From an uncultured Verrucomicrobiales bacterium (GTDB lineage Bacteria; Verrucomicrobiota; Verrucomicrobiia; Verrucomicrobiales; DEV007), in contig CALAHF010000177.1 of assembly GCA_937891465.1 (NCBI GenBank), forward strand, positions 1-54,553: a stretch of DNA of 54,553 bases, written 5' to 3'. Every line of letters starts with the position of its first letter. The stretch's first letter is position 1. This document shows, piece after piece, positions 2,579-18,509 of this stretch. Below the pieces are notes generated by a model that made no database searches, was not told where the DNA came from, and saw only the letters and a list, made by a program, of their open reading frames with translations. The position numbers and the translations under genes were made by a program.

Positions 2579-3817
2579 ATGGGGCGTATTTTTGGTTTTA
2601 TGGGCATCCTTTGCCTGATTTTGATAGGGGTTTCTTCGCGATTCCCCTATCTGTTTCGCGAACTCACAGCGGCTGTGGAGCGAGGCCGTTTTGAGCTGAC
2701 TGAACCCAACCGAAAGAAGTTTCTTGCGAAAACCCTGCAGGAAGTCAATCGGCTCAGAACTCCACTTTCCTTGAAACCGATGTCGATTGATCGGGATATT
2801 CAGGATGCGCTGACTGATGTGTTAAATCTTCAGAACGATCCCGATGATTTGGTTTTGCAGGATCTCTTTACTCACCTCCAGGATCGTTTTCCGGGCGCTC
2901 AATTTCTTTCAGCCAATGTTTCGCACAGCCTTACCGACGTTGGCTTGATCGAATCGATCGCAATGTGGGAGGACGTGACGAGCTCAGACTACGAATCCAT
3001 CAGCTCGGTACTTTTTGTAAACGGGCACCGGCTCGGTTGCATTTCAGTTCTGGCAAAGCGCCTCCCTGAGTTCAATGTCACCGCAGCCAACAAGCTGGGG
3101 GGCCGGTATTTCAATCGATGCCCGCATTGCAAGCTGACCCATGCGGTTGAGCTGAAGAAAAAGTCGCGCACGCTGGTTTTGGCCTGCCCTGATTGCAACC
3201 AGGCCTACGACGTCCTTGCTGCCGATACGCATGGAGTATTCTACCGTGCAAATGACTTCCTCCTCGGATTCAAACTTCCCCATGTTGTTGGAATTGATGA
3301 AGACGAAATGAGCAAGCCTTCTGAAAAGCTGCTGCTTCACATTTGGCGGACCGTGGTGAATCATTGTGAATATCAGAATGATGCAAGTCGCACCGCTCAG
3401 CGTGAAGCGTGGAAGACTCCGGATCAGACCTGGTTGGAACGGGCCGGAGATTGCGAGGATACCTCCATTTTGCTAGTTGATTCCCTGATTTCAGCCGGAT
3501 TTGAAGCTCGTGTCGCTGTTGGTTGGAATACGCAAATTGGTCAGCATGCGTGGTGTGTCGCGAAAGTCGGCAACAAGCAGTATGTGATGGAATCAACGAT
3601 TCAGGACGGCAAGAACGTACGGCTGCTCAGCGCTGAAGACGCGGCAGCCGAATATAGTCCCGAACAGCTTTTTGACCGCGATCATCTCTATTTTCGAACG
3701 ACGGCGAAGGAGATGACTCTCAACGATTATTGGGGTGATAACACGTGGAAGGCTGTTGAATTTCTGGTGCAAACCCCGATTACTCGTTTCGATCCTGAGA
3801 TAATCGGAGCCAACTGA
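2579..3817 (+). CDS. Transglutaminase-like (cysteine protease fold) protein with embedded zinc ribbon
   Basis: A 412-residue protein. The N-terminal hydrophobic stretch (about residues 4-18) is a likely signal peptide or anchor. Residues 181-206 hold two CxxC pairs (C181/C184 and C203/C206) spaced like a zinc ribbon. Residues 285-340 match the transglutaminase-like core: Cys292 in GDCEDTS, His323 in GQHAW and an acidic residue, Glu338 in VMEST, where Asp is more usual. Family knowledge: such domains act as proteases, amidases or transglutaminases on proteins or peptides. The substrate is unknown. It is monocistronic and convergent with the transporter gene, the two stops being 18 bases apart. 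The ATG follows an A+T-rich stretch without a clear ribosome site. Confidence 0.8.
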   Translation: MGRIFGFMGILCLILIGVSSRFPYLFRELTAAVERGRFELTEPNRKKFLAKTLQEVNRLRTPLSLKPMSIDRDIQDALTDVLNLQNDPDDLVLQDLFTHLQDRFPGAQFLSANVSHSLTDVGLIESIAMWEDVTSSDYESISSVLFVNGHRLGCISVLAKRLPEFNVTAANKLGGRYFNRCPHCKLTHAVELKKKSRTLVLACPDCNQAYDVLAADTHGVFYRANDFLLGFKLPHVVGIDEDEMSKPSEKLLLHIWRTVVNHCEYQNDASRTAQREAWKTPDQTWLERAGDCEDTSILLVDSLISAGFEARVAVGWNTQIGQHAWCVAKVGNKQYVMESTIQDGKNVRLLSAEDAAAEYSPEQLFDRDHLYFRTTAKEMTLNDYWGDNTWKAVEFLVQTPITRFDPEIIGAN

Positions 3818-3835
3818 GATTCGTCCCGGAACGGA

Positions 3836-5110
3836 TCAAAGATCTGCTTTCTTGGGACGGAACAGCAGGCAGAACAGCACCAGCACGACAACTAGGTAGC
3901 CTGCCGGAATCAGCCAGAATCCCTTCCAGGCGCTAAACGATGAGCCATCGGTCATGGCTTTGTTGTAGAGGTATCCCGCAAAAAGCTGGGAGCTGATTAA
4001 AAATCCGATTCCCTGAGTCACCACGGTGAGCAGCCCCTGAGCTTGCGCGCGGACGTTTTCGCCCACGTTTTTGTCCACATATAAATAGCCGGAGATAAAC
4101 ACGAAATCGTAAGCGAAGCCATGCAGAATGACAGCTCCGAACAGCAACGGAAATGCCGCCGATGAAGGTTCGGTCAACTGACCTGCAACCAACCCGCCTT
4201 CGGCCATTCCTCCCGCCGCGAACGAGAACAATACATAGCGAATGACCCAGCAGCTCATTCCGATGATCATGGTCCATTTGATTCCGAATTTACGGATAAA
4301 AACCGGTAAGATGAACGCCAGCACAACGAGTTCAGCCATTTGTCCATAGGTCAAAAAACCGGCAGCGCCTTTGATTCCGGATTCAGCAAGAAACGTCCCG
4401 CCGTTCGCCCAATACGGCATCATTGCAATCGCAGCGAGAAAGGAAGCGATGATGAAAAATGCGAACGCTGGCTTTCGAAAATACGGAAAGGTTTGCACCC
4501 CGCAAATGTCCCCAACCGACAACGGCTCTCCCTTCCCTGCCGGTGGCGTTTTCGGCATGAAAAATGAATACACACCCACCACAACCGCGGCAATCCCGGC
4601 CACGTAAAACTGAATTACTGACGTGTCAGCTTGGAGACCTTTGCTAATGAAAAGCCCGGCGACAATCCAACCGAGGGTCGCAAAAATCCGCACGATCGGA
4701 TAGTCCTTCTCCGAATTTGCGAGATGCTTCAGACAAATCGTATTCGAAAGTCCCAAGGTCGGCATAAAACAGAGCGCGTGGACCAAAAGGATGATGATGA
4801 AAATCTCGGGCGTCTCTGCCGATGCAAACTGCGGGGCAATCGCGATGGCAATTCCAGACAGGATCAGCAAGATTCCCTGAAGCCGCTCTGCATTCATAAA
4901 CCGGTCAGCAAACACGCCCATGAAAAACGGCGTAATGATCGCTGCGATCGGAGTCGTTGAATAAGCCCAGCCGATGAATTCGGCCATTCCCGCTTGATTC
5001 ATGAAAATCCCGACGGAAGCAAACCACGCTCCCCAAGTGAAAAACAGGAGGAACATCATGACGCTCAAATTGATGAAGAGCCCCATCGAGGATTTTTTTG
5101 CAACGGACAT
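3836..5110 (-). CDS. Nucleoside:H+ symporter, NupG/XapB-type major facilitator
   Basis: A 424-residue, very hydrophobic protein with about 12 membrane segments. Recognisable family blocks are FMPTLGLSNTI near residue 120 and the later GFAYDFVFISG and RAQAQG blocks, which match the NupG/XapB nucleoside transporters rather than sugar transporters. Expected role: proton-driven uptake of nucleosides across the inner membrane. I chose the ATG at 5110; an in-frame TTG ten codons upstream (5140) is possible but less likely. No catabolic nucleoside genes lie beside it. A 43-bp palindromic element sits in the divergent gap upstream. Confidence 0.87.
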   Translation of the reverse strand: MSVAKKSSMGLFINLSVMMFLLFFTWGAWFASVGIFMNQAGMAEFIGWAYSTTPIAAIITPFFMGVFADRFMNAERLQGILLILSGIAIAIAPQFASAETPEIFIIILLVHALCFMPTLGLSNTICLKHLANSEKDYPIVRIFATLGWIVAGLFISKGLQADTSVIQFYVAGIAAVVVGVYSFFMPKTPPAGKGEPLSVGDICGVQTFPYFRKPAFAFFIIASFLAAIAMMPYWANGGTFLAESGIKGAAGFLTYGQMAELVVLAFILPVFIRKFGIKWTMIIGMSCWVIRYVLFSFAAGGMAEGGLVAGQLTEPSSAAFPLLFGAVILHGFAYDFVFISGYLYVDKNVGENVRAQAQGLLTVVTQGIGFLISSQLFAGYLYNKAMTDGSSFSAWKGFWLIPAGYLVVVLVLFCLLFRPKKADL

Positions 5111-5214
5111 AAACAGGAGTCTGCCATTTTCTGAGATCAAAAATCAAGCAAACTCTCACCGCGATTCTTTCCGATCACGTATTTCCACAACAAATGGCTG
5201 CATCCCGTTTTTCA

Positions 5215-5257
5215 CGATCCAACCCTGTTGATTCGATAAACAGACCCTCTTTGTTCG
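5215..5257. repeat. 43-bp double-palindrome element, copy 3
   Basis: This copy fits the family frame from CGATCC to GTTCG. Its left unit has the centre CCT (AACCCTGTT) rather than AGG, so both half-cores read in the same direction. It lies between two divergent genes, on the promoter side of both. Confidence 0.8.
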
Positions 5258-5346
5258 TAGGACAGGGACGCGGATCCAAATACCCGCCCGATTGAAAAAT
5301 GATTCAGATTTATCCTATGAATTCACAGCGTGAAGTGTCTTTTATC

Positions 5347-5775
5347 ATGATGACTACAAAAGTTTCGAAATCAAATTGGATCATAGCGGCAATCATTTTT
5401 ACTTTAAGCGCCGAGCTCAAGGCCAATAACCCTGCTGATCCGCTAATCACTGCCTTGGATGAACCGAATGCAGAAAAAGCGGTGTTCGACGATGCCACTC
5501 GAACCAAGCCGATTGTCCTGAAATCAGCAGACGATGCGGCAAAGTATTTCAGCAAAGCCGAACTGGCGAAGCTCACCAAAGCTGTCGATTTCAAAAAACG
5601 GGTCGTCCTTATTTTTGCATGGCGCGGCTCCGGTCAGGATCTGATGGACCTCTCAGTGGGCGAGTCCGACCCCGAACGGGTGATTTTTAAGGTCAAGCCG
5701 GGCAGGACGAGAGATCTCCGGCCGCATACCGTCATTTACTCTCTTCGGTCGAATGTGATGTGGAGTGCGAAATGA
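5347..5775 (+). CDS. Secreted protein of unknown function
   Basis: From the ATG at 5347 the product is 142 residues with a signal peptide (WIIAAIIFTLSAELKA). Longer starts at 5299 and 5320 would put a charged extension before the signal, so they are less likely. The mature part is alpha/beta-like, with a strand RVVLIFAWRGSG followed by DPERVIFKVKPG and a final strand. I see no Cys, His or Ser motif of a known enzyme. It may be a small beta-sandwich or binding domain of a type common as secreted proteins in Planctomycetota and Verrucomicrobiota. Confidence 0.6.
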   Translation: MMTTKVSKSNWIIAAIIFTLSAELKANNPADPLITALDEPNAEKAVFDDATRTKPIVLKSADDAAKYFSKAELAKLTKAVDFKKRVVLIFAWRGSGQDLMDLSVGESDPERVIFKVKPGRTRDLRPHTVIYSLRSNVMWSAK

Positions 5776-5928
5776 GTATCAGCCTAATTGTCGCCTTTGG
5801 TTTTCTTGGAATTGGCAACCGCTGAAAGATCGAGAGGGAGATGAGTTAGACCAACTAAAAACAGAAGGCAATATCAGACGATAGAAGATCCGTCTGTTGA
5901 ACAGGATCTGGAGGTAGAACACCCTTCC

Positions 5929-6702
5929 TCACTCAGCCTTCTTCACCTGCACAAAATTGAAGTGCCGGCTCTCGATGTAACCGCCGATTCGCCAGACGTA
6001 GTCGCACTCCATGGAGGCTGAAATGGCTTCAGAAAAACGATCCATTACGTCGTAAACGGGCATATCAAACAGACTGAGTGAGATCTCTTTTTTCGTCGAC
6101 AAATAGGTTTCGCGAACGGGCCCGCTGTAGACCATGGCGTGAGCAAATCCGTTTGGCTCAGTGACATCAGGCCCGAGTTTGAAAATTGCTTCGCCAATCA
6201 CAGTCGGCGGCATGATGAGCATGTTTTTGTCGCGAAAATCATTGGTTGCGGGAACCACTCCAAGACGGTTATCGCCTTCCCAAATCCGGTAGCGGGCGCC
6301 TTTGGTGATGGCGACTTTCAGGAGATCGTGAACAACGAGCGGCTCTTCGGTTTTCAGATCAAACCGCACTTCGTAATAATGAAAAATCGTTGCGAGCTGT
6401 TTGGCCGTCTCTTTCTCGGTCTTCCGTCCCAGCTCCAACCACCATTTCTCACGCTCATTCAAAGTCTCAACCTTCTGTTTGCCAAAGGTATCGAGAACTT
6501 TTTGATACGAAACTCCATCATCCCACGTCGCGGGGTATTCTTCGAAATTCAAGGGAGCACCTTTCTTCTGAAGGAAATCAATGAGCTCCCGCATTGAGAT
6601 GTCAGATTTTTCGAAGGGAGCAATGACCTGAGGTTTCTTGTCATCCTGCGCAACCATCGATCCCGCCAAAACGGCGACCAACAGGGCGAGCTTTCCTTTC
6701 AA
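5929..6702 (-). CDS. Secreted protein of unknown function with a C-terminal STN/secretin-like segment
   Basis: A 257-residue protein with a short signal peptide (MKGKLALLVAVLAGSMVAQ). The C-terminal part, about residues 205-255 (EISLSLFDMPVYDVMDRFSEAI and onward; the start of this block is quoted), has the beta-alpha-beta rhythm of the small N-terminal domains of secretins and TonB receptors. A similar pattern (SDISMRELIDFLQ) occurs near residue 33. This similarity is by eye and weak. It is divergent from the WXG100 operon, with 87 bases between the starts, so the two may share a control region. Confidence 0.6.
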   Translation of the reverse strand: MKGKLALLVAVLAGSMVAQDDKKPQVIAPFEKSDISMRELIDFLQKKGAPLNFEEYPATWDDGVSYQKVLDTFGKQKVETLNEREKWWLELGRKTEKETAKQLATIFHYYEVRFDLKTEEPLVVHDLLKVAITKGARYRIWEGDNRLGVVPATNDFRDKNMLIMPPTVIGEAIFKLGPDVTEPNGFAHAMVYSGPVRETYLSTKKEISLSLFDMPVYDVMDRFSEAISASMECDYVWRIGGYIESRHFNFVQVKKAE

Positions 6703-6789
6703 AAATGGAATACTGAAATATCCAACAAAATTGCCGGATAGAAAAGAGATTTGGCTTGTTTATTCGATGGTTATTTTTGATGATTGGGC

Positions 6790-7062
6790 ATGGCTCAAGC
6801 AATCATGGATCCGGAGGACGTGCGCCGATTCGCAGAGGAATTGAAGCGGTTCAATGGTGACTTACAAAACAACATGTCGGCGCTGCAAGCTCGTTTTGCG
6901 GCGCTCGGCGACACTTGGCAGGATCAGGAGAATCAGAAATTCGCGGCCGAATTTCATGACACAATGAAAGTGCTGCGGAAATTTATCGAGGCTTCCAACG
7001 CCCAGGGGCCGTTTCTGATGCGGAAAGCCCAGAAGATTGAGGAATACCTTTCTCAGCGTTGA
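6790..7062 (+). CDS. WXG100-like (ESAT-6-like) small helical protein
   Basis: A 90-residue, almost wholly helical protein with two long heptad-rich helices joined by GDTWQDQEN. The Trp sits at about position 46, where WXG100 proteins have their Trp-x-Gly turn; here it is Trp-Gln-Asp. A Phe-rich second helix (FAAEF) follows, as in the family. Family knowledge: WXG100 proteins form helical-hairpin dimers and are substrates or partners of FtsK/EssC-type ATPases in type VII secretion. It is the first gene of a four-gene operon that ends in such an ATPase. I use the ATG at 6790; a TTG at 6784 is the alternative. Confidence 0.78.
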   Translation: MAQAIMDPEDVRRFAEELKRFNGDLQNNMSALQARFAALGDTWQDQENQKFAAEFHDTMKVLRKFIEASNAQGPFLMRKAQKIEEYLSQR

Positions 7063-7087
7063 TTCGACGCCCCCTCTCCCCTTTTGA

Positions 7088-7624
7088 ATGGCACAGAAAG
7101 CCCATGTTACCTCGATTGAGACACTCGATAAGTTGCGAGTGGCCCTTCTCATTTTTATCGAAAAAGCCACGCTCGTTCTCGACGAAGTGAGCGAGGAGGT
7201 GAAGCGAACACGGATCTGGCTCCAAGTCGAGCAGGGGCCGCTGATTGCCAGAATGCAGAAGCAGCGGATGAAGGAGTTGGACATGTTTCAGCAGGAACTC
7301 TACACGGCCCGGATGTCGGCGCTGAATGAGACAAAAACGGGGTACCAGCAACGGGTGAACAAAAAGCGGAAGCAGCTGCGCGATCTGGAGGACAAGATGC
7401 GAACGGTGAAAAAATACACCCGCAATTTTGATTCCGAAGTCGAACCCGTAGCGAAAAAGGTCGAGAAACTTCGATCCGTGATCGATGTCGAAATGAAAGC
7501 TGCCGTGATTTTTCTAACTAAATCCGTAAAAATTTTAGAGGCCTATTCGGAAGTGAAATCTGTCCCAAAAGCAGCTGTGGCAGCAACAACTGAGCTGACG
7601 GAAGACTCCGAAGCCGAATCTTGA
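7088..7624 (+). CDS. Coiled-coil protein of the WXG100/FtsK operon
   Basis: A 178-residue protein, mostly helix, with Lys/Arg/Glu-rich heptads (about residues 60-115) and no signal peptide or membrane segment. A second helical part (about residues 120-160) precedes an acidic, Ala/Thr-rich tail. I know no named domain for it. It lies 25 bases after the WXG100-like gene and one base before the next, so it is co-transcribed. Possible roles are a chaperone, a scaffold, or a larger helical substrate like LXG or PE/PPE proteins; none of their signature motifs is present. Confidence 0.7.
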   Translation: MAQKAHVTSIETLDKLRVALLIFIEKATLVLDEVSEEVKRTRIWLQVEQGPLIARMQKQRMKELDMFQQELYTARMSALNETKTGYQQRVNKKRKQLRDLEDKMRTVKKYTRNFDSEVEPVAKKVEKLRSVIDVEMKAAVIFLTKSVKILEAYSEVKSVPKAAVAATTELTEDSEAES

Positions 7625-7625
7625 T

Positions 7626-7856
7626 ATGAGCCTTCACCAACCCAGAACCCGTCTCGCTGGAACAGCCAAAGCGTTCAAACGTGAATGGTTGGACCTGAAA
7701 GACCAATGGCGAGACGAAAAGGCCACTGAATTTAAAAATCGCTACATCGAGGAGCTGTTTGACTCCGTCGATCATGCCGTCGCGGCCATTGATGGGCTCG
7801 ACAAAATCATCTCCAAAATCCGCGAAGACTGCGATGTTGAAACTACCGACTACTAA
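7626..7856 (+). CDS. Small helical WxD protein, probable second WXG100-like partner
   Basis: A 76-residue helical protein. Its centre reads LKDQWRDEKATEFKNRY, which lines up with the turn of the first gene (LGDTWQDQENQKFAAEF): Trp-x-Asp followed seven residues later by Phe. This suggests two related helical hairpins that could pair as a heterodimer, as EsxA and EsxB do. The gene starts one base after the preceding stop. Its 3' end overlaps the ATPase gene by 23 bases in another frame, a sign of translational coupling. Confidence 0.7.
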   Translation: MSLHQPRTRLAGTAKAFKREWLDLKDQWRDEKATEFKNRYIEELFDSVDHAVAAIDGLDKIISKIREDCDVETTDY

Positions 7857-10800
7857 CGAGATTCTCGATCTCATCGGAACGCTGACCGCGACGGTCAAAG
7901 ACTTCGCGGAGCGCGAGGGCAAGCTCAACTATGCCCTGAAGCTTAGGATATCGAACTTGCAGCAGGGTCTTCGTGAAGAGATCGAGGAACTCGAACGGGA
8001 TTCGCAAGGGCAGATCGCGGCGGTGGCGCAAGTCGCCGAGACTGAAAAAGAGCGGATTACGGAACGCCTCGATTTCCGCAAATCTAAGCTGGCAAAGGCT
8101 CAATTATCCGCACGGAAGGCACTGCTGGATCGGATTCAGAAAAAAGAAGGCTACGAAAAATACGAAAGCCAAAAACACGTGATCGATAGCGGGCGGACCC
8201 GGGATCAAAAACTGCAACAGGCCGAAATCGAATTTGCTGAAAAAAGTGAAGCATTGGCAAGTTGGCAGAAGAAATTCGGGAAGCTCGAAAGTGGAACTCA
8301 CAAAGGAATTCGGGCATTTGGCTCGCTCGAAAAACGTCTTAAAAACGATCTCGCGGCAGCTTCCAAAAACGACCGGAATGTGTCGGATGAGGAACTGGCG
8401 GCGCTCAACACGATTTTTCAAGAAGCCCACCCCGTTCAGAAGTCGATCCGGAAGCAGTTCATCGCCCAGTTTTTCGGCACCTTTCCAGTATCACTCATTG
8501 TCATTTTACTGTTGATCATCGGCGGCGGTTTGGTGCCGGTTTTAGACCTTCTAAAAATCGAATCACCGCTGACCTCCGTTTATGTGGGGGCGGCGTGCGG
8601 CGGCTTGATCGTTCTGTTCCTTGCGCTCTTTTTCATCACTCGCGGCGCTATCGCCCCGAAAGCGAACGGCATAATCAAACAACTCGCAGAGGCCCGTTCG
8701 ATTCGAAAAAATTTGGCGATTCATTTCACATCATCTCACGAATCGCGGGTCGAAAATATCACCGCCGAATTTGACGACGCCCGCACTGAATTTGAAGGCA
8801 ACTTGAAAGCTTCGTCGGCCGCCGCAGGGGCCATGCGTGTTTCCGAACCGGAAGCAATCGAGCAGAAAGCGGTGCGAATTGCCGAACGAATTGAAACGGC
8901 AAAAGCCGAACAGACCGCTGCTGTTGATGCTGAACTTTCGACGCAAATGCAGGCGCTTCGCGACAAGAACGAAGCATCGATCAATGCGCTGACAGGCGAT
9001 TCAGACTCGACCGGCTCTCAGTTCTCCGACGAAAACGCGCGACAATGGGCCGCCCTCGAAGATGAATGTAAAGCCACCATCCCCGCCCTTTTTGAGAAGG
9101 CGGCAACCGCTCAAACCGTTGCGACGCAGGAGTTTTTGCCATGGACCAAAGAAGCCGTCGAAAGCTGGGCGGCTCCTGCAGAATTCCGACACACGGCGAA
9201 ATATGGCTCGCTCACTTTTGATCTTACCGAAGCCGTCGAAACGCTCCCGAGCGATCCGCGCCTGGCTCTACCGGCTGACACTCAATTTGAACTCCCCCTC
9301 GCCCTCTCGTTTCCCGAATCCGGTTCGATCTTGTTTGAAACCAAAAACACGGGAAATCAGGAAGCCATCGATGCGCTGAACAATCTGATCCTGCGAATTT
9401 TTACAGGCACTCCTGCCGGCCGCGCCCAGTTCACGATCATCGATCCCGTGGGGCTTGGGCAGAATTTTGCAGGCATCATGCACCTTGCTGATCACGAGGA
9501 ATTTCTCATCTCGTCGCGGATTTGGACTCAGGCAAATCAGATCGAGCAGCAGCTGGCCGATCTCAGCGAGTACATGGAAAAAGTGATCCAGATGTATCTC
9601 CGAAACGAGTATGCGACGATCACCGAATACAATGAGAAAGCGGGGAACATTGCCGAGAAATATCACTTCGTGGTCGTGGCGGATTTTCCCCATGGATTCA
9701 CCGAACAATCGGCCCAGCGGCTTCTCAGCATCGCCAACACGGGCGCGCGATGCGGCGTTTATACATTGATTCATTGGGATCAACGGGCTCAGATGCCCCT
9801 CAGCTTTATGGGCGATGATTTGCGGAAATCGAGCGTGTGTTTAAAAACCAACAGGGACGGTTTTTTCCTGCCGGGGAATCCGGTGCCGTCGTCAAAAATG
9901 ACACTCGATCCACCGCCGTCAGATGCTCTCGCGATTGATCTCGTCAATCGAATTGGGAAAGCCAGCAAGGACTCGAATCTCGTTCAGGTTCCCTTTTCTC
10001 ACATCGCTCCATTGACGGATACCGAGTTTTGGTCGCTTGACACCAGCAGCGAACTCCGCGTGCCGATTGGACGAACAGGAGCCACAAAATTGCAGTATCT
10101 CGAAATCGGAAAAGGCACCTGCCAACACGCGCTCATCGCCGGTAAAACAGGCTCAGGTAAATCGACTTTGTTTCACGTCATCATCACCAACCTGGCTTTG
10201 TGGTGCGATCCCGATCAGGTCGAGTTCTACCTGATCGATTTCAAAAAAGGCGTCGAATTCAAATGCTACGCTGATGCCAAATTGCCTCAAGCCCGGGTCA
10301 TCGCAATTGAGTCCGACCGCGAGTTCGGTCTCAGCGTGCTGCAACGACTTGATGAAGAATTGAAACGGCGTGGTGAGCTGTTCCGCAAAATGGGTGTTCA
10401 GGACGTGGCTGGCTACAAACGCGCTGGCGGCACCGAACCGGTTCCGCGTTCGCTACTATTGATCGATGAGTTTCAGGAATTTTTTATCGAAGACGATTCC
10501 GTTTCGCAAAACGCAGCTCTCCTACTTGACCGAATCGTTCGTCAAGGCCGTGCTTTTGGAATCCATGCCATCCTTGGTTCGCAAACTCTGGGAGGCGCTT
10601 TCACCCTCGCCCGAGCGACATTGGGGCAGATGGTGATTCGGATCGCACTGCAATGCAACGAAGCCGACGCCTATTTGATCATGGATGATTCCAATCCTGC
10701 ACCACGGATGCTGACGCGGCCGGGAGAAGGAATCTACAACGACAGTGCTGGCGCCATCGAAGGCAATAGCCCGTTTCAAGTGGTCTGGCTTGGCGATGAA

Positions 10801-11715
10801 AATCGCGATGAATGGATCTCCAAATTGGACGGGTTAAAATCGAATTTCGACAACCGGCATTCCGAAGCGGTGATCTTTGAAGGAAATGCTCCGGCGGACG
10901 TCTGCGAAAATTCCGTCATCACCAAGCTCCGAACGACCACTCCCGAATCCCGCCCTCCCGCAGCTCGGCTCTTCCTCGGCGCGCCCAATTCAATCAAAGG
11001 CCCGACCGAAATCATTCTGCAACGTCAGAGCGGCAACAATGTGCTGATCATCGGCCAACGTGACGAAACCGTGCTCAGCATGATCGCCATTGGATTGCTT
11101 GGTTTGAAACATCAGTTTGCCGACGGCGACGCAAAACTCATCTTGATCGACGGAAGCCCCGAAGGTTCTTCCGAAGCCAATTTTCTCAATGCCATTTTGC
11201 CTACGATTTCAGCAAAAATTGAGCGTCCATCTCCAGCAGACATCGGAACCACAATCAACGCTCTCGCGATTGAAATGAATCGTCGGGTTGATGAAAACGA
11301 TACCACCGCGTCCCCGATTTTCTGCTTCATCAACGGGCTTCAGAAATTCAAAAAACTCCGCTACGAAGACGACTTCAGCTTTTCGATGAGCGATAACGAC
11401 GAGGTAGCCGAGGCCAAGCCCGGCAACTCGCTGAACGATATCATTACCGAAGGCGCCGGCGTTGGAATTCATCTGATCGTCGCGATTGATACCTTCAACA
11501 ATCTCAACCGCGCCATGAGCCGCAAAGCTATCACCGAATTCGAAATGCGGGTCCTTTTCCAAATGAGCGCGAACGATTCAGCGAGCCTGATCGACACCAT
11601 CAAAGCGAGCACTCTTGGCTTGAATAGAGCTCTGTTTTACAACGAACAAGCCGGTTATCTCGAAACGTTCCGTCCGTATTCCCAGCCTGATCGAAGCTGG
11701 TTCTCCGAGGGGTAA
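7834..11715 (+). CDS. Coiled-coil, membrane-anchored FtsK/SpoIIIE-type ATPase (EssC/EccC-like role)
   Basis: 1293 residues from the ATG at 7834; the frame is open further upstream but that part overlaps the previous gene. Order: N-terminal coiled coil (about 20-190), two membrane segments (about 212-238 and 250-272), a second helical region (about 280-440), then an FtsK/SpoIIIE ATPase with Walker A AGKTGSGKST (769-778, Lys776) and Walker B LLLIDEF (Asp878, Glu879). A second, ATPase-like domain follows, but its P-loop position (VLIIGQRDET, from 1070) lacks the GK[ST], so it is probably catalytically dead. No FHA domain is visible, unlike EssC of Firmicutes, and no DNA-binding gamma domain, unlike FtsK. 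The WXG100-like genes in the same operon argue for protein export rather than DNA transport. Confidence 0.88.
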   Translation: MLKLPTTNEILDLIGTLTATVKDFAEREGKLNYALKLRISNLQQGLREEIEELERDSQGQIAAVAQVAETEKERITERLDFRKSKLAKAQLSARKALLDRIQKKEGYEKYESQKHVIDSGRTRDQKLQQAEIEFAEKSEALASWQKKFGKLESGTHKGIRAFGSLEKRLKNDLAAASKNDRNVSDEELAALNTIFQEAHPVQKSIRKQFIAQFFGTFPVSLIVILLLIIGGGLVPVLDLLKIESPLTSVYVGAACGGLIVLFLALFFITRGAIAPKANGIIKQLAEARSIRKNLAIHFTSSHESRVENITAEFDDARTEFEGNLKASSAAAGAMRVSEPEAIEQKAVRIAERIETAKAEQTAAVDAELSTQMQALRDKNEASINALTGDSDSTGSQFSDENARQWAALEDECKATIPALFEKAATAQTVATQEFLPWTKEAVESWAAPAEFRHTAKYGSLTFDLTEAVETLPSDPRLALPADTQFELPLALSFPESGSILFETKNTGNQEAIDALNNLILRIFTGTPAGRAQFTIIDPVGLGQNFAGIMHLADHEEFLISSRIWTQANQIEQQLADLSEYMEKVIQMYLRNEYATITEYNEKAGNIAEKYHFVVVADFPHGFTEQSAQRLLSIANTGARCGVYTLIHWDQRAQMPLSFMGDDLRKSSVCLKTNRDGFFLPGNPVPSSKMTLDPPPSDALAIDLVNRIGKASKDSNLVQVPFSHIAPLTDTEFWSLDTSSELRVPIGRTGATKLQYLEIGKGTCQHALIAGKTGSGKSTLFHVIITNLALWCDPDQVEFYLIDFKKGVEFKCYADAKLPQARVIAIESDREFGLSVLQRLDEELKRRGELFRKMGVQDVAGYKRAGGTEPVPRSLLLIDEFQEFFIEDDSVSQNAALLLDRIVRQGRAFGIHAILGSQTLGGAFTLARATLGQMVIRIALQCNEADAYLIMDDSNPAPRMLTRPGEGIYNDSAGAIEGNSPFQVVWLGDENRDEWISKLDGLKSNFDNRHSEAVIFEGNAPADVCENSVITKLRTTTPESRPPAARLFLGAPNSIKGPTEIILQRQSGNNVLIIGQRDETVLSMIAIGLLGLKHQFADGDAKLILIDGSPEGSSEANFLNAILPTISAKIERPSPADIGTTINALAIEMNRRVDENDTTASPIFCFINGLQKFKKLRYEDDFSFSMSDNDEVAEAKPGNSLNDIITEGAGVGIHLIVAIDTFNNLNRAMSRKAITEFEMRVLFQMSANDSASLIDTIKASTLGLNRALFYNEQAGYLETFRPYSQPDRSWFSEG

Positions 11716-11726
11716 TCCAGATTTTT

Positions 11727-11769
11727 CGATCCAACCCTGTTGGTTCATCGAATCTACCCTCCCTCTTCG
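11727..11769. repeat. 43-bp double-palindrome element, copy 4
   Basis: Starts 11 bases after the ATPase stop. Left unit CGATCCAACCCTGTTGG, centre TTCATCGAA, right unit less conserved, ending CTTCG. It fits the 43-position frame exactly. Confidence 0.75.
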
Positions 11770-11847
11770 TGAAACTCTTTATTTTTCTGTTGAGGTAATA
11801 TTGAATTAAAGGACGCGTCCAAAGCGGCGAACCTAAATCATCTACTC

Positions 11848-12006
11848 ATGAAAAAATTGATCCAACCCCTCACCATCGGTGCTGCGACCGCTGGCATCGC
11901 GCTCACCACAAGCTGCGAACAGAAGTCAGAATCTGAAAAAGCCGTCGAGAAAATTGGCGATAAGATCAAAGACGCCGCAGATAAAGTCGAAGATGCGCTT
12001 GATTGA
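11848..12006 (+). CDS. Small lipoprotein (52 residues)
   Basis: An ATG at 11848 opens a 52-residue frame. The N-terminus is a lipoprotein-type signal (MKKLIQPLTIGAATAGIALTTSC) with Cys23 as the probable lipidated residue. The mature part is a short, highly charged amphipathic helix (EKAVEKIGDKIKDAADKVED). Such entericidin-like small lipoproteins are common in Verrucomicrobiota; their function is unknown. It is monocistronic and is followed by a strong terminator at 12075-12111, which supports expression as its own unit. Confidence 0.75.
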   Translation: MKKLIQPLTIGAATAGIALTTSCEQKSESEKAVEKIGDKIKDAADKVEDALD

Positions 12007-12028
12007 TTTCCTAAATTTTCAATCCTGA

Positions 12029-12046
12029 AGCCACGTTGCGGTGGCT
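12029..12046. other. Short hairpin after the lipoprotein gene
   Basis: AGCCAC (12029-12034) pairs with GTGGCT (12041-12046) around a 6-base loop. It is followed by a C-rich run, not a T-run. It lies between the lipoprotein stop and the strong terminator and may be part of one structured 3' end. Confidence 0.4.
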
Positions 12047-12074
12047 CCTTGATTCCTCCCCCCCAAATTCGAAT

Positions 12075-12111
12075 AGCCCAGTTTCAGTTATTACGGAAGC
12101 TGGGCTTTTTT
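12075..12111 (+). terminator. Strong intrinsic terminator of the lipoprotein gene
   Basis: AGCCCAGTTTC (12075-12085) pairs with GAAGCTGGGCT (12096-12106), an 11-bp stem with one G-T pair and a 10-base loop, followed at once by six T residues (12106-12111). This is the textbook rho-independent form. Confidence 0.9.
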
Positions 12112-12133
12112 GTGTAATTTCGTTCCGGAAACC

Positions 12134-12271
12134 CTACCAAAACCCATCGTCCCCACGCTCACTCACATCCAGCACTCGACGCTCAGCTATTCTTTGAATC
12201 AATTCCTCAGGAAGTGAATCTTCATAGCGAACTTGTAGACTGCCATGCGTTGTTTCGAAGCCATTTTCTCC
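12134..12271 (-). pseudogene. Remnant of a DUF1801/YdhG-like protein (C-terminus only)
   Basis: The minus strand is open for 45 codons between a TAG just upstream and a TAG at 12136-12134, with no start codon. The product contains FETTHGSLQVRYEDSLPEEL followed by IQRIAERRVLDV. This resembles the C-terminal end of DUF1801/YdhG-like proteins (Gly-Thr-hydrophobic stretch, then PLP..LI..LV..R). The match is by eye. The rest of the gene is not found nearby. A 43-bp element lies just upstream of its broken end. Confidence 0.4.
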
Positions 12272-12323
12272 CTATCTTTTAGAACATCCTCTCAAGGGAG
12301 AAAAGCCGATCTAAACGATGAAA

Positions 12324-12366
12324 CGATCTAACCGTATGCGGCCATCGAATCACCCCTGTTGGTTCG
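12324..12366. repeat. 43-bp double-palindrome element, copy 5 (left unit degenerate)
   Basis: The right unit (GAATCACCCCTGTTGGTTC) and the ATC centre are well kept. The left unit has diverged (CGATCTAACCGTATG) but the 43-base spacing from CGA to TCG is exact. It lies upstream of the phosphofructokinase start. Confidence 0.65.
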
Positions 12367-12410
12367 TGAAATGCTTGCGCAGGTTTTGAGAAATGCTTTA
12401 TGATATGTGA

Positions 12411-13525
12411 ATGACAAAACACATCGGAATTCTCACAAGCGGAGGCGATTGTCCGGGCTTAAATGCCGCGATTCGCGGGGTCGCGAAAGCGGGGATTGGC
12501 AACTTCGACATGAAGTTTCTCGGTTTTAAAAATGGATTCAATGGACTGTGCCACGACCAAACGATGCCGTTGGCATGTTGTCAGGAATTCTGACGGATGG
12601 AGGAACGATTCTGGGAACGAGTCGCGATAAGCCGAATAAAATGCCAGTCGGCGGTAAAAAGCGCGATATGACGGCTGAGATTGTCGGTGTCTACGCGCGG
12701 CATCACTTGGATGCGCTGGTCTGCCTTGGTGGCGGCGGAACGCAGAAAAATGCGCTTCATTTGAAAAACGCGGGTCTAAATGTGGTGACGCTTCCGAAGA
12801 CGATCGACAATGACGTATTTGGAACGGACGTGACGTTTGGATTTGATACGGCTCTGGGAATCGCCACGGAAGCGATTGACCGAATTCACTCAACGGCAAC
12901 GAGTCACAATCGAGTGCTCGTTGTCGAAATCATGGGGCACCGCGCCGGATGGCTCGCGTTGGAATCCGGAATCGCTGGCGGGGCGGACGTCGTTTTGATT
13001 CCTGAGATCGCCTATGATCCTGAAATCATCGCCGAAGCAATCAAAGATCGGAGTCGTGCCGGGAAACATTTCAGCATCGTGGCGGTCGCAGAAGGGGCCA
13101 TGACAATAGATCAAGCGAAGCGCATCGAGATATTGTCCGCCCAGAAAGAAGACGCGTCGACAAAAGAGGAGAAGGCGGAGGCCTCGCAGGAGTTATCGGA
13201 TTTTCATCGCGAACACGTTCGCCACACGCAGGATCTAACGGCTACACTAGAGGAACTGACTGGCTGCGAATCGCGCCTCACGATTCTAGGACACATTCAA
13301 CGCGGCGGAACCCCGTCGCCGGTTGATCGCGTTCTGGCAACTCAGCTTGGAGCAACCTGCGCTCAGTATTTGGCGGATGGCGGTCATGGAGATATGATGT
13401 CGGTCCGCGGATCGGAGATCGTTCCGGTTCCGCTGGAAGAGATCGCCGGTCGGAAAAACCTTGTTCCCACCGATCATCCGCTTATCCAAACTGCTCGCCT
13501 CGTCGGCACGTGCTTTGGCGATTAA
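12411..13525 (+). pseudogene. pfkA: 6-phosphofructokinase, interrupted by one frameshift
   Basis: The ATG at 12411 opens a frame with the PFK start motif [17 protein letters not shown] and goes on to [13 protein letters not shown]. It then runs out of homology and stops at 12593. The rest of the enzyme continues in another frame from about 12575 with [20 protein letters not shown], then [18 protein letters not shown], an [12 protein letters not shown] block and [11 protein letters not shown]. One missing base near 12570 would join the two parts into a full-length enzyme of about 371 residues that phosphorylates fructose 6-phosphate. The GGGGT loop favours ATP as donor, while the Lys in PKTIDND is also seen in pyrophosphate-linked types, so the donor is unsure. 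It is either a real pseudogene or a sequencing error. Confidence 0.85.
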
Positions 13526-13631
13526 TCAGCTCACCGCGACTGCGGGAGTATCACCTGTCTGTTTTTTGGTAAAAACTTCTGAAACCCCAAATTCTCCCTG
13601 AATCCTGTTATTCCGGAAGGATCTCGTCTCC

Positions 13632-15503
13632 ATGAATATTCGTCCAACTTTCACTTCCATAGTCGCTTTGGCCATCGGCCTGGCTTCGATCGCTAGCGCT
13701 CAAGCCGCACCACGCCCGGCAAAGCCGAATATCGTTCTCTTGCTAGCTGACGATCTTGGCTGGCAGGACGTCGGTTGTTACGACATTGACGAACCTTGCC
13801 CGTATGAAACGCCGAATCTCGATCGGCTCGCAACGGAAGGCGTGAAGTTTTGGCAAGCTTACTCCCCTTCCCCGACCTGTGCCCCTAGCCGGTGCGCGAT
13901 CCTTTCTGGTAAACATCCGGCACGCGCCCAGAAAACCCATGTGGTTGGTGGAGCGCCTCCGTCTCCGTTTTCGAGGAACAATCCGATGATATCGCCGTGG
14001 TATAGCGGTCGAATGAAGATGGATGAAATCACGATTGCAGAGGCTTTAAGAACAAATGGCTACATCACGGGTTGTATCGGAAAATGGCATTGTGCAATCG
14101 AACACAACGCTTTCCCTCAGCCGAAGGATCAAGGGTTTGATGTTTCAACGATGGAACGCGGCGCCACGTCGAGACCAAAGCCTGATCGGCTGTCGAACTT
14201 TTCGACTACTGCTGAAGACGATCCCTATCGTCTAGATGAAAACGGATTTCCCTTTCACCATAATGCAGAAGACGCGCTAATGTTTCTTCACGAAAACGAT
14301 GACAAACCGTTTTTTCTTTATCATCCCACCTGGCTTGTTCATTCACCAATTCATACGCGGAGCGAGGCCTTGCTAAAGAAATACTGCGAAAAAATGGACG
14401 TGCCCTATCCCACAGACCCAGATAAGTGGGAAATCGAAGGCCAAAAAAATCCGTTCTATGGCGCGATGGTTGAAGCGCTCGATTACTACGTGGGCAACGT
14501 CATCAAATACTTGGATGAAACCGAGGACCCGCGCTGGCCAGGGCATAAACTCGCAGAAAACACGTATGTCATTTTCACTTCCGACAACGGCGGTTTTGTT
14601 TCACATCCGGGCGAATTCATCACCACTAATGCACCGCTGGATAAAGGTAAAATCAACGCCAAAGAAGGCGGAACCCGAGTTCCCTTAATCATTCGCGGTC
14701 CGGGAATTGCTGCTGGAAAAGAGACAGATACGATAGTCAACGGCCTCGATTTTTATCCAACGATCATGAACTGGACGGGAACAGAGAAACCTGCTGAGCA
14801 GCAACTCGACGGGCTCGACCTCGCTCCGTTTTTGAAATCTGACTTGTCTGACAATGCTCTAATTGCGGATGCTTCAGGAAAGGCGCGCGATACAATGATG
14901 TGGCATTTCCCAAATTCTGTGGCGATGCAATCCACCATTCGGCGGGGCAATTATAAACTGATTCGCAACTGGCTGCCGTATTTTAAGACAAACGGAGGTG
15001 GGCTCTATTTGTTCGAACTCTACGACGATTCCGGCAAGCGCGTCGACATTGAGGAGGCGAAAAATGTTGCCCCCGAAAACCCTGAATTGACCAAGGAATT
15101 GAACAATTTGCTCGAAGAGATGCTGACCGAGATGAAAGGCAGTCCGCCATTTTTGAATCCAATCGCTAAATCAAACCCAGCAACTAAAACCAAAATCTGC
15201 ACGCCGCTTGAACACGGCATTGATGGAAAAAAAGTGTGGATGACCTACAAAGAAAACGGCGCAAAAGTAGTCAAGACTCATCTGCTTTACACCGACAACG
15301 GCGGCACTCGCTACGAGGAGTGGTATCGGATCGATGCCGTCATCGAAGCCGGCGGCAAAGTGACGGCACGGCTTCCCCGCAAAACTACTCACTATGTTTT
15401 CAATCTAATCGATGAAAATCATTACCTCGTGAGCTATCCCGAAATGGTTCCTGAGAACGAGCGTAAAGAGAACTATTCAATGAAAGCGCTGAGCGCCCGC
15501 TAA
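13632..15503 (+). CDS. Secreted sulfatase (arylsulfatase A/N-acetylhexosamine-sulfatase type)
   Basis: A 623-residue protein with a signal peptide (about residues 1-25, ending AQA-A). Active site: Cys83-Ala-Pro-Ser-Arg87 followed by CAILSG, a canonical formylglycine signature. Metal ligands: Asp40-Asp41 in LLLADDLG and the TSDNGG block further on. The GKWH block is also present. About 120 residues at the C-terminus, after the sulfatase fold, hold a beta-rich segment ending in a YSMKALSAR tail; it may bind carbohydrate or close the active site. The enzyme needs the formylglycine-generating enzyme, which is not in this window. It is monocistronic. Confidence 0.93.
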   Translation: MNIRPTFTSIVALAIGLASIASAQAAPRPAKPNIVLLLADDLGWQDVGCYDIDEPCPYETPNLDRLATEGVKFWQAYSPSPTCAPSRCAILSGKHPARAQKTHVVGGAPPSPFSRNNPMISPWYSGRMKMDEITIAEALRTNGYITGCIGKWHCAIEHNAFPQPKDQGFDVSTMERGATSRPKPDRLSNFSTTAEDDPYRLDENGFPFHHNAEDALMFLHENDDKPFFLYHPTWLVHSPIHTRSEALLKKYCEKMDVPYPTDPDKWEIEGQKNPFYGAMVEALDYYVGNVIKYLDETEDPRWPGHKLAENTYVIFTSDNGGFVSHPGEFITTNAPLDKGKINAKEGGTRVPLIIRGPGIAAGKETDTIVNGLDFYPTIMNWTGTEKPAEQQLDGLDLAPFLKSDLSDNALIADASGKARDTMMWHFPNSVAMQSTIRRGNYKLIRNWLPYFKTNGGGLYLFELYDDSGKRVDIEEAKNVAPENPELTKELNNLLEEMLTEMKGSPPFLNPIAKSNPATKTKICTPLEHGIDGKKVWMTYKENGAKVVKTHLLYTDNGGTRYEEWYRIDAVIEAGGKVTARLPRKTTHYVFNLIDENHYLVSYPEMVPENERKENYSMKALSAR

Positions 15504-15530
15504 TTAGCTGAAACTTTTACTTAGCTATGA

Positions 15531-15698
15531 GCCAATTCAGTAAGAACTCAAACACCCGCTGTTCTGACCCGCGTGGTTCACGAATTTTCCGATGCTGACG
15601 ATGTCGAAATCATTCTGAATGCGCTGAAAGCAGAAGAATTCAAACTGCGATCGATGATTCTGGAGATTGCGGGGAGCAATCCGTTTTGGACGAAATAG
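15531..15698 (+). pseudogene. C-terminal remnant of a DUF1592/DUF1588/DUF1585-type cytochrome-associated protein
   Basis: A 55-codon frame without start runs from just after a TGA (15528-15530) to a TAG at 15696-15698. It ends in a helix-rich tail (LKAEEFKLRSMILEIAGSN, then PFWTK). This is the kind of end found in the large secreted Planctomycetota/Verrucomicrobiota proteins with DUF1592/1588/1585 domains, where a short "IVxSxPF" motif closes the protein. Nothing of the remaining gene (usually more than 700 residues) is present upstream, where the sulfatase ends at 15503. Identification rests on the tail only. Confidence 0.4.
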
Positions 15699-15870
15699 AA
15701 TGACGATCGCAAAATTACCTCACAGACAAATTGCGACTTCTTTACAAGCTCCTGACAACGTTCCCAAGATACCGGTGATTCTCTTTTCACCATGAAATAG
15801 AGTCTCAAACGAATCGCCAAGTCGCTACCCTCAGCATCACCGAAGCATTCGTTTAAACACTCTTCTCCCA

Positions 15871-16344
15871 ATGAAACTCAGATTAAACAAACCCGCTAAA
15901 TCACTCTTTATCATCGCCTTGCTTAGCTTTCCCATCGCCATTTGGGGAGCAAAAATACCAGCAAGCCCGGAAAAACTCGAAAAGCAGGCAGACCTTGTCG
16001 TTACTGGAAAGGTGATTTCAATAACCTCAAAAATCGGGAAATCGAAAATTGAAACGTCTCCGGGTCTTCATCGCGACGAAGTCTTTACGATCAAGATTCT
16101 GGTTTCAACAGTCAAAAAGGGAGCGGGAGTCAAATCCGGTGATCAAATTGAAATCGCTGTGTGGAAGCCGGTGAAGCGAATCCCACAGGTCCCCGGTTTG
16201 CAAGGTCACCAACCCGTTCCCGCCAAGGGAGATACCGCGACATTCTTCCTTAAAGGGAAAGTTGGAATGCTACTCGAACCTATTTTGCCGAACGGAATTT
16301 CGATCGCAAAGCCGTTGCCCGCAAAACCAAAAGCGATCAAATAA
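15871..16344 (+). CDS. Secreted small beta-rich protein of unknown function
   Basis: A 157-residue protein with a signal peptide (about residues 1-26). The mature part starts ASPEKLEKQADLVVTGKVIS and continues with alternating strands (FTIKILVSTVKKG, GDQIEIAVWKP), ending in a Pro/Lys-rich tail. The "ADLVVTGKV" opening and a late GDTATFFLKG strand resemble OB-like secreted domains that are frequent in Planctomycetota and Verrucomicrobiota. No catalytic residues stand out. It is convergent with the next gene, with 34 bases between the stops. Confidence 0.6.
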   Translation: MKLRLNKPAKSLFIIALLSFPIAIWGAKIPASPEKLEKQADLVVTGKVISITSKIGKSKIETSPGLHRDEVFTIKILVSTVKKGAGVKSGDQIEIAVWKPVKRIPQVPGLQGHQPVPAKGDTATFFLKGKVGMLLEPILPNGISIAKPLPAKPKAIK

Positions 16345-16378
16345 TGCCGCATCTCGACGCGGTCGGAAGCGCCCGAGG

Positions 16379-17326
16379 TTATTCAGCCTCGTCGGCCCCA
16401 TCTTCAGACGATTCCGCTTCCTCGCCTTCGAGCTGAGCCCCTAAAATCCGCTTCAACTCGCCTTTGTGGAGATCCCAGGTCTTTTGAATGTGATCGCGGC
16501 GAGTCACCCACATCGCGCTGTCATCGGGCTCCAACTGGTAATTCATCACAGCGAAGATCCGATCTTTCAGCATGTCGAACTCCACCGTTGTACCGGATTC
16601 GTCTTTACCGGAAACGACAATCTTTTTGACGATCTCATTCTCGTCATCAGAAAAATCATCGTGAATTCGCAGCCACGACTCCAGCGTGGCTGCAGCGACC
16701 GCCTGATTTAGCGTTGCCCCTTTTTCGCGAGCCGATTTCATCACGATCTCAATTCCGGGAGATTCAGTTTGCGCTGCATTTTGAATGACTCGCATCGTGT
16801 TTTCATCGAGGCTTTCCAACGTCGGCATCACATCAATGACTTCAGCCGAAATATGAATTTTGCGAATCACGGGGAGAATTTTCATCTTCATCAAGTCCGT
16901 CGGGCGAAGGATCGGCTTAATCTCAACATCGCCGTCGATACTGCCCTGCTGCTTGATGAAACTCGCCATCTGTTTGGCTGAAACGGCTTTGCTATTCCGT
17001 TGCAGCACGAGAATCCCACTCTCAAAATCATAGTAGAACGCTGAGCATTCCGCCATGCCCTCGTTCTTGTCGAGATTCACCGCCGTGATCTCACCCGTCA
17101 GATTGGCCCGAAAACCCGCCGGAGCCATCGAAATCCGCATCATGTCCCCGAGATACCCGGCATCATTGACCTTGCCTCGGGTCAGGCGAATCCAATCATC
17201 ATTGATTTCGACATTCCGCTTTTCGCTATCAGCCGGAATTCCATGGACATTCCGAAGAACGGTTTCGAGATCTTTTGAATCTGTAATTTCAACGGTATAG
17301 AAATCAATTTTCGACGATTTTTGCAT
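16379..17326 (-). CDS. Cytoplasmic protein of unknown function, possibly DUF6731-like
   Basis: A 315-residue soluble protein without signal or membrane segments. The N-terminal half is beta-rich (IDFYTVEI, then MAECSAFYYDFESGILVLQR). This order, with the phrase YDFESGILVLQRN near residue 105, reminds me of DUF6731 proteins, but I recall that family only loosely. The C-terminal half has longer helices (QAVAAATLESWLRIHDDF) and an acidic tail. Function unknown. The gene lies 87 bases downstream of a phosphotransferase gene on the same strand. Confidence 0.6.
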   Translation of the reverse strand: MQKSSKIDFYTVEITDSKDLETVLRNVHGIPADSEKRNVEINDDWIRLTRGKVNDAGYLGDMMRISMAPAGFRANLTGEITAVNLDKNEGMAECSAFYYDFESGILVLQRNSKAVSAKQMASFIKQQGSIDGDVEIKPILRPTDLMKMKILPVIRKIHISAEVIDVMPTLESLDENTMRVIQNAAQTESPGIEIVMKSAREKGATLNQAVAAATLESWLRIHDDFSDDENEIVKKIVVSGKDESGTTVEFDMLKDRIFAVMNYQLEPDDSAMWVTRRDHIQKTWDLHKGELKRILGAQLEGEEAESSEDGADEAE

Positions 17327-17413
17327 GTGCCGTCCTCGTAGCCGCAGACCTCGTTGTGGTCAAACCGTTCGCGAAAGATTTGAGGGACAATTGATCATTT
17401 TTCAACGGTGTAA

Positions 17414-18506: not shown

Positions 18507-18509
18507 CCT

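What the first reader, a model, noticed from the sequence alone, without database searches (positions are those of the whole stretch)
6790..11715. Minimal WXG100/FtsK operon: a candidate type VII-like export system outside the classical groups
Four tightly packed genes encode a WXG100-like protein, a coiled-coil protein, a second Trp-x-Asp helical protein and a 1293-residue membrane ATPase with an FtsK core. Known type VII systems (ESX, Ess/Yuk) need further membrane parts such as EccB/D/E or EsaA/EssB/YukD; none is here. The ATPase has an N-terminal coiled coil instead of FHA domains. Sequence and operon structure are seen; the secretion role is inference. In a diderm PVC cell the outer membrane poses an extra question about the route.
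Basis: partly seen in the sequence, partly recalled or inferred. Interest (0 to 1): 0.78.

Follow-up and report, generated by a model that had tools for sequence, protein, structure and literature searches.

The report
Minimal type VII-like export cassette
Four neighbouring genes in a Verrucomicrobia-type bacterium encode a stripped-down relative of the type VII (WXG100/EccC) protein-export machine, inherited as a closed set and without the toxin and immunity genes that related cassettes elsewhere carry; what it moves, if anything, is unknown.

Summary
The operon holds a true WXG100 protein, a long helical-hairpin protein, a second small Trp-x-Asp protein and a two-TM ATPase with three FtsK-fold domains, of which only the middle one keeps its Walker motifs. 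In the order, 28 of 30 testable loci keep the four genes in this order. In 388 phylum genomes the ATPase and the WXG100 occur in exactly the same 20 genomes. Each of the three small proteins is single-copy. EssB/YukC, YukD and LXG are absent from 15 relatives, with a positive control. The ATPase branches with other WXG100-cassette ATPases, apart from cellular FtsK and from EccC. This kind of cassette is already known: Bell et al. 2024 describe it in CoCoNuT Type III-A operons, citing Anantharaman 2012 for stand-alone copies, and an H. pylori study names a WXG100 secretion system. New here are the membrane-anchored ATPase, the absence of a toxin or immunity gene, and the Verrucomicrobiota-wide all-or-none inheritance. 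A related Helicobacter plasmid cassette carries a coiled-coil WHH nuclease with a SUKH immunity gene, which favours export of effectors in the family. For this variant, export and cargo are inferred, not shown. New variant of a known kind.

The parts
6790..7062 (+). WXG100 protein (90 aa, W-Q-D in place of W-x-G), most conserved member of the set
   Evidence: Pfam WXG100 36.7 bits over cut-off; A1: 28 orthologues, all 90 aa, 79% mean column identity
7088..7624 (+). long helical-hairpin protein (178 aa) with a variable tail and no C-terminal domain
   Evidence: AlphaFold2 helices 5-76 and 80-157, mean pLDDT 87; 28 orthologues; matches the first 138 residues of a longer Rhodococcus plasmid protein
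7626..7856 (+). second small helical protein (76 aa), invariant W21, W28-x-D30, F36, C69
   Evidence: A3, 28 orthologues; weak profile similarity to the WXG100 around W-x-D
7834..11715 (+). membrane ATPase, 1293 aa, EccC/EssC-like
   Evidence: FtsK_SpoIIIE 2.5e-29; EccCa 112.6 bits, below the model's cut-off; orthologues 42-64% over full length
7834..8448 (+). N-terminal charged helical region (residues 1-205), probably coiled coil
   Evidence: sequence inspection and alignment A4 only
8455..8664 (+). two transmembrane helices (residues about 208-277)
   Evidence: hydropathy scan: two hydrophobic stretches in 21 of the 23 aligned proteins; in two (L024, L026) only the second stretch passes the threshold
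9193..9975 (+). FtsK-fold domain I (residues about 454-714), no Walker A motif
   Evidence: AlphaFold2 model; Walker A found exactly once per protein, in domain II
10054..10881 (+). FtsK-fold domain II (residues about 741-1016), the only one with intact Walker motifs
10141..10167 (+). Walker A GKTGSGKST (residues 770-778)
   Evidence: invariant residues G770-T778 in 23 aligned proteins
10450..10473 (+). Walker B SLLLIDEF (D878, E879 invariant)
10963..11706 (+). FtsK-fold domain III (residues about 1044-1291), no Walker A motif, ends in the conserved FRPY motif

Best explanation
The operon encodes a minimal, self-contained type VII-like translocase of the inner membrane. The ATPase probably forms a hexamer through its FtsK-fold domains. 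It is held in the membrane by two TM helices, with its N-terminal helical region and ATPase domains in the cytoplasm, and it works with one active ring (domain II) between two inactive ones. The WXG100 protein, the small W-x-D protein and the long helical hairpin probably form a helical bundle that docks on the ATPase and is threaded across the inner membrane, alone or with a cargo. Shown: gene content, order, co-inheritance, motifs, TM helices, predicted folds, kinship of the ATPase. Inferred: the hexamer, the three-protein complex, the topology, the direction of transport and the cargo. In relatives the gene at the hairpin's place carries a nuclease, with an immunity gene beside it in Helicobacter; here it is a bare hairpin. 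This looks like the carrier part of a toxin-delivery cassette kept without its toxin, now serving another or an unlinked cargo.
For: Gene set and order conserved in 28 of 30 loci. Identical sets of 20 genomes for ATPase and WXG100 among 388. Helical protein and small protein single-copy and all-or-none in 37 relatives, apart from one weak stray hit each. A genome in which the trio is unlinked from the ATPase still keeps both (G044). ATPase with two TM segments and closer by profile to EccC than to FtsK. EccC and EssC crystal structures align over two to three domains of the model (4nh0 739 residues at rmsd 13.3; 4n1a 505; 4lya 491), FtsK over one. Tree: all cassette ATPases form one group (94/92) apart from the host FtsK group. 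Helical hairpin model. Helicobacter plasmid cassette: WXG100, coiled coil with WHH nuclease (1.1e-11), SUKH immunity (1.6e-6), small protein, ATPase. Separate coiled-coil proteins with TM helices beside the ATPase in the Deinococcus, second Rhodococcus and Akkermansia-type cassettes, so a membrane anchor recurs.
Against: No YxxxD/E signal in the WXG100 or small-protein families (0 of 28 each) and only scattered in the helical protein (9 of 28). The HxxxD/ExxhxxxH pattern occurs in 1 of 28 WXG100 rows. No YukC, YukD, EccB or LXG matches in 15 relatives. Only one WXG100 in the genome (the second Pfam hit is a coiled-coil region of a long repetitive protein), and no other protein carrying the helical domain, so no dispersed substrates. 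The CoCoNuT relatives' ATPases lack TM helices (PMC11090510). Secretion has been shown for no member in any source read here.
Confidence: 0.52

Rival explanations
1. Not an exporter: a membrane-tethered conflict or stress-response machine. The ATPase acts as a remodelling motor on the three helical proteins inside the cell, as part of phage defence or envelope stress sensing, as in CoCoNuT and TerD-linked cassettes.
For: Closest relatives sit in CoCoNuT Type III-A operons (VWA, CARF/Card1, PP2C, kinase, helicase) and beside TerD genes; no toxin, immunity gene or dispersed substrate here; the WXG100 is more conserved than the ATPase, which suits a machine part better than an effector.
Against: The Verrucomicrobiota copies stand alone: no recurrent neighbour family in the flanks apart from local synteny. 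PADLOC matches are FtsK/HerA-domain matches only. TM helices and the toxin-immunity pair of the Helicobacter relative point to export.
Confidence: 0.28
2. A DNA translocase or DNA-pumping system with WXG100 proteins as accessory factors.
For: The active domain aligns with the FtsK motor domain at Z 30.9, rmsd 2.6 over 278 residues, as any FtsK-fold domain would.
Against: Groups apart from the host FtsK proteins (100/99 for FtsK); profile 112.6 bits to EccCa against 26.4 to FtsK; three tandem domains, one active, ending right after domain III with no room for a DNA-binding gamma domain; co-inherited with a WXG100.
Confidence: 0.06
3. A full member of the classical ESX/Ess T7SS whose accessory parts are unlinked in the genome.
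For: WXG100 and EccC-like ATPase are the two parts shared by all T7SS (PMC11217815).
Against: YukC/EssB and YukD profiles find nothing in 15 relatives while the B. subtilis control rings; only three FtsK-fold domains, against four NTPase domains reported for EccC/EssC (PMC11217815).
Confidence: 0.05

Closest known systems
WXG100/EssC-like ATPase cassette of Type III-A CoCoNuT operons (Bell et al. 2024, PMC11090510; example loci L151, L168)
   Same: WXG100, coiled-coil protein, second WXG100-like small protein, ATPase with an N-terminal coiled coil and three FtsK-fold domains of which only the central one is active, in the same order; WXG100 of L151 35% identical over its full length
   Different: There the coiled-coil protein carries a restriction-endonuclease-like domain, a further small gene lies beside it, the ATPase has no TM helices, and the set is embedded between VWA, CARF, PP2C, kinase and helicase genes
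Stand-alone WXG100/FtsK secretion cassette (Anantharaman et al. 2012, as cited by PMC11090510; 'WXG100 secretion system' of H. pylori, PMC4978471)
   Same: WXG100 plus FtsK-type ATPase in a diderm, proposed as a minimal type VII-like system
   Different: The H. pylori cluster also has an HNH/ENDO VII nuclease and a DnaK homologue (PMC4978471); here there is no nuclease and the helical protein is bare. The 2012 paper itself was not available here
T7SSb (Ess/Yuk) and T7SSa (ESX); subtypes c-j of PMC11217815
   Same: WXG100 protein and a membrane-bound EccC/EssC-type ATPase
   Different: No YukD/EsaB, YukC/EssB, EccB or LXG found; three FtsK-fold domains rather than four; only the second active; no FHA; diderm host
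Helicobacter plasmid pNHP190012_1 cassette (L169)
   Same: WXG100 (89 aa), coiled-coil protein, 77-aa protein, FtsK-type ATPase in one run
   Different: The coiled-coil protein ends in a WHH nuclease followed by a SUKH immunity gene; ATPase 823 aa

Membership tests
WXG100 superfamily (for P0002) | passes the curated Pfam profile cut-off; about 100 aa with a Trp-x-Gly (or variant) turn | tested here: met
   PF06013 36.7 against 27.3 bits; 90 aa; W43-Q44-D45, W and D invariant. The third residue is Asp, not Gly
WXG100 superfamily (for P0002) | C-terminal HxxxD/ExxhxxxH pattern of Poulsen et al. 2014 | tested here: not met
   1 of 28 orthologues (pattern from PMC3935865)
WXG100 superfamily (for P0004) | profile match or clear homology | tested here: inconclusive
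   no Pfam match; hhalign to A1 only 28% probability over 33 columns around W-x-D
Type VII secretion system (any subtype) | membrane-bound EccC/EssC-type ATPase | tested here: met
   two TM helices; EccC-type profile scores (under the models' own cut-offs); two-to-three-domain alignment with EccC/EssC structures. It branches apart from EccC in the tree
Type VII secretion system (any subtype) | co-encoded WXG100 protein | tested here: met
Type VII secretion system (any subtype) | four NTPase domains in the ATPase (PMC11217815) | tested here: not met
   three FtsK-fold domains in the model of residues 440-1293; the region before it is TM and charged helical sequence
T7SSb (Ess/Yuk) | EssB/YukC and EsaB/YukD | tested here: not met
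   0 of 15 genomes each, B. subtilis control positive
T7SSb (Ess/Yuk) | LXG substrates | tested here: not met
   0 of 15 genomes, control positive
T7SSa (ESX) | EccB | tested here: inconclusive
   0 of 15, but no control genome rang
T7SSa (ESX) | EccD, EccE, MycP | not tested
   not searched genome-wide; none in the operon
T7SSa (ESX) | YxxxD/E secretion signal on a WXG100 or partner | tested here: not met
   0 of 28 in WXG100 and small protein; 9 of 28, at scattered positions, in the helical protein
Type VII secretion system (any subtype) | ATPase-dependent export of the WXG100 | not testable with these tools
   needs cells
WXG100/EssC-like ATPase cassette (Bell et al. 2024) | WXG100, coiled-coil protein, second small helical protein and ATPase with only the central domain active | tested here: met
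WXG100/EssC-like ATPase cassette (Bell et al. 2024) | nuclease domain on the coiled-coil protein | tested here: not met
   178 aa hairpin with a low-confidence tail; none of 28 orthologues is much longer
FtsK/SpoIIIE DNA translocases | groups with cellular FtsK | tested here: not met

The most novel reading that the evidence does not exclude
A toxin-free, membrane-anchored branch of the WXG100/EssC-like cassettes has become a vertically kept core apparatus of many Verrucomicrobiota: a four-protein machine with no separate effector. It either exports its own helical complex into the periplasm or works as an envelope device, which would be a use of WXG100 proteins outside effector delivery.
Probability: 0.3. 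Interest if true: 0.72.

Novelty: new variant of a known kind. Interest (0 to 1): 0.52.

Why it matters
If it exports, it is a four-gene type VII-like system in diderm bacteria, small enough to rebuild and test whole. That would make directly testable the open question of which parts of a T7SS are needed for translocation and how WXG100 cargo leaves a cell with an outer membrane. If it does not export, it would show WXG100 proteins and an EccC-like motor doing another job, and would bear on how the CoCoNuT and TerD-linked cassettes work.

Tried and rejected
Second WXG100 hit in the genome (C217, 22.4 bits): part of a 1354-residue low-complexity, coiled-coil-rich open frame, rejected. Dispersed substrates carrying the helical or small-protein domains: none in 37 relatives beyond one weak stray hit each. 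Viral carriers: the viral-contig scan found no relatives, and phage records hold only partial FtsK-domain matches (PHROG match). PADLOC: only FtsK/HerA-domain matches to the ATPase and weak coiled-coil or chance matches. Fold search of the hairpin: only generic long helical hairpins (SMC arms, PI3K iSH2, Vipp1, YscO) at Z 10-11, not informative. Mapping domain I to the EccC DUF or D1: profile search found nothing usable, and domain III gave only a weak hit to EccC5, so the exact equivalence of the three domains is left open. Homology of the helical protein to the CoCoNuT coiled-coil nuclease and of the small protein to its counterparts was not shown by profile comparison; their equivalence rests on position, size and pattern, except for the Rhodococcus coiled coil. 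Promoter and terminator scans of the region gave fewer sites than shuffles, so nothing was concluded. The inserts between genes in L042 and L044 were not resolved.
Full report
Observation. The four genes are present at the stated coordinates. They are packed tightly: 25 nt between the first two, 1 nt between the second and third, and a 23-nt overlap of the third with the ATPase. The first is a WXG100 protein by Pfam (36.7 bits, cut-off 27.3), with the turn read W-Q-D. The second has no convincing family. The third has no family but carries W-R-D-x-K-x-x-x-F, the pattern of a WXG100 turn. The fourth matches FtsK_SpoIIIE, and among curated models scores EccCa (112.6 bits) and EssC (86.3) far above FtsK (26.4), though below the T7SS models' own cut-offs.

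Conservation. A search of 57 relatives found full-length orthologues of the ATPase (42-64% identity) in most of the family and in other families of the order. I fetched 32 loci and called ORFs. Of 30 loci with readable upstream DNA, counting the window, 28 have WXG100, helical protein, small protein and ATPase in that order. In the other two, L041 (G053) keeps only the small gene next to the ATPase and L054 (G044) keeps none; both genomes hold the WXG100 at an unlinked place, and G044 holds the helical and small genes there as well. No other gene family recurs beside the set except local synteny. The WXG100 is the most conserved part: all 28 copies are 90 aa, with 79% mean column identity, against 58% for the ATPase, 44% for the helical protein and 48% for the small protein.

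Co-inheritance. In 388 genomes sampled across the phylum, strong ATPase matches and strong WXG100 matches fall in exactly the same 20 genomes, and the genome with two ATPases has two WXG100s. Two further genomes have partial ATPase relatives without this WXG100 (G365 fragments; G101, whose locus L155 has its own pair of WXG100-like genes). The helical and small proteins are single-copy and all-or-none in 37 relatives, apart from one weak stray hit each. Named records place the family in Verrucomicrobiota: Prosthecobacter, Verrucomicrobium, Roseibacillus, Pedosphaera/Limisphaerales, Chthoniobacteraceae and others.

Anatomy of the ATPase. Residues 1-205 are charged helical sequence (judged by eye). 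Two hydrophobic stretches at about 208-277 appear in 21 of 23 aligned proteins; in two, only the second stretch passes the threshold. A further helical stretch follows. An AlphaFold2 model of residues 440-1293 (24 sequences, mean pLDDT 83.7) shows three tandem FtsK-fold domains. The Walker A motif occurs once per protein, in the middle domain. EccC and EssC structures align over two to three domains of the model (4nh0: 739 residues at the loose rmsd of 13.3; 4n1a 505; 4lya 491), while FtsK aligns over one, tightly. In a tree of the active domain, the window, its orthologues, CoCoNuT-associated, Rhodococcus, Deinococcus, Helicobacter and Akkermansia-type cassette ATPases form one group (94/92), apart from the host FtsK proteins (100/99) and from EccC (89/82). 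The tree is midpoint-rooted and has long branches, so the position of the group relative to EccC is open.

Small proteins. The helical protein is predicted as one long hairpin, helices 5-76 and 80-157 (pLDDT 87). Structure search gives only generic long hairpins. The T7SS signal YxxxD/E is absent from both small families, and the HxxxD/ExxhxxxH pattern is nearly absent from the WXG100.

What related cassettes look like. In genome G258, the second WXG100/ATPase pair sits among VWA, Card1-type CARF, PP2C-like, kinase and SF1 helicase genes. This is the Type III-A CoCoNuT arrangement of Bell et al. [quoted passage not shown] They note that its ATPase lacks TM helices and cite Anantharaman et al. 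2012 for stand-alone copies as secretion systems. A Caballeronia plasmid has the same arrangement. A Rhodococcus plasmid has the set next to TerD genes; its WXG100 and coiled coil match the window's by profile (91.6% and 81.3%) and its coiled-coil protein has an extra C-terminal part of unknown kind. A Helicobacter plasmid has WXG100, coiled coil with a WHH nuclease, SUKH immunity, small protein and ATPase, a toxin-immunity arrangement that favours delivery. An H. pylori pan-genome study names a WXG100 secretion system in that species (PMC4978471). In the Deinococcus, second Rhodococcus and Akkermansia-type cassettes a separate coiled-coil protein with TM helices lies by the ATPase, so membrane anchoring recurs. 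In the window it is built into the ATPase.

Interpretation. The window set belongs to this known kind. It differs in three ways: TM helices within the ATPase, a bare helical carrier with no toxin and no immunity gene, and clade-wide all-or-none inheritance with no dispersed substrates. I think a type VII-like translocase of the inner membrane is the likeliest reading (0.52), with an intracellular or envelope conflict machine the main rival (0.28). It is not a classical T7SSa or T7SSb: YukC, YukD and LXG are absent with a working control, EccB was inconclusive, and EccD, EccE, EsaA and EssA were not searched. Export has not been shown for any member in the papers read.

Noticed in passing
window 12411-12591 and 12548-13525: The 6-phosphofructokinase gene downstream is split over two frames: its N-terminus ([23 protein letters not shown]...) reads from 12411 in one frame to a stop at 12591, the rest continues in another frame from about 12548. 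Frameshift, either real or from assembly.
   Followed up: partly
L151 (genome G258) 3666-18999: A Type III-A CoCoNuT-like locus in a distant relative in the same phylum, with VWA genes, Card1-type CARF nuclease, PP2C-like, kinase, SF1 helicase and a non-membrane copy of the WXG100/ATPase cassette; the same genome also has the stand-alone membrane type (L150).
   Followed up: partly
L155 (genome G101) 6734-10802: An Akkermansia-type cassette with two WXG100-like proteins of 97 aa, a 316-aa coiled-coil protein with several TM helices and an 836-aa ATPase without them: the anchor and motor are separate proteins here.
   Followed up: partly
L169 4722-9124 (Helicobacter plasmid): WXG100, coiled coil with WHH nuclease, SUKH immunity, small helical protein and ATPase in one run: a likely polymorphic-toxin version of the cassette.
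   Followed up: partly
L166 6508-16604 (Rhodococcus plasmid): The same cassette in reverse order (ATPase first) beside TerD genes and DUF475; its coiled-coil protein has a C-terminal part of about 170 residues with no Pfam match.
   Followed up: no
window 7626-7856, residue C69 (alignment A3): An invariant cysteine in a conserved C-terminal D-C motif of the small W-x-D protein, unusual for a WXG100-like protein and unexplained.
   Followed up: no
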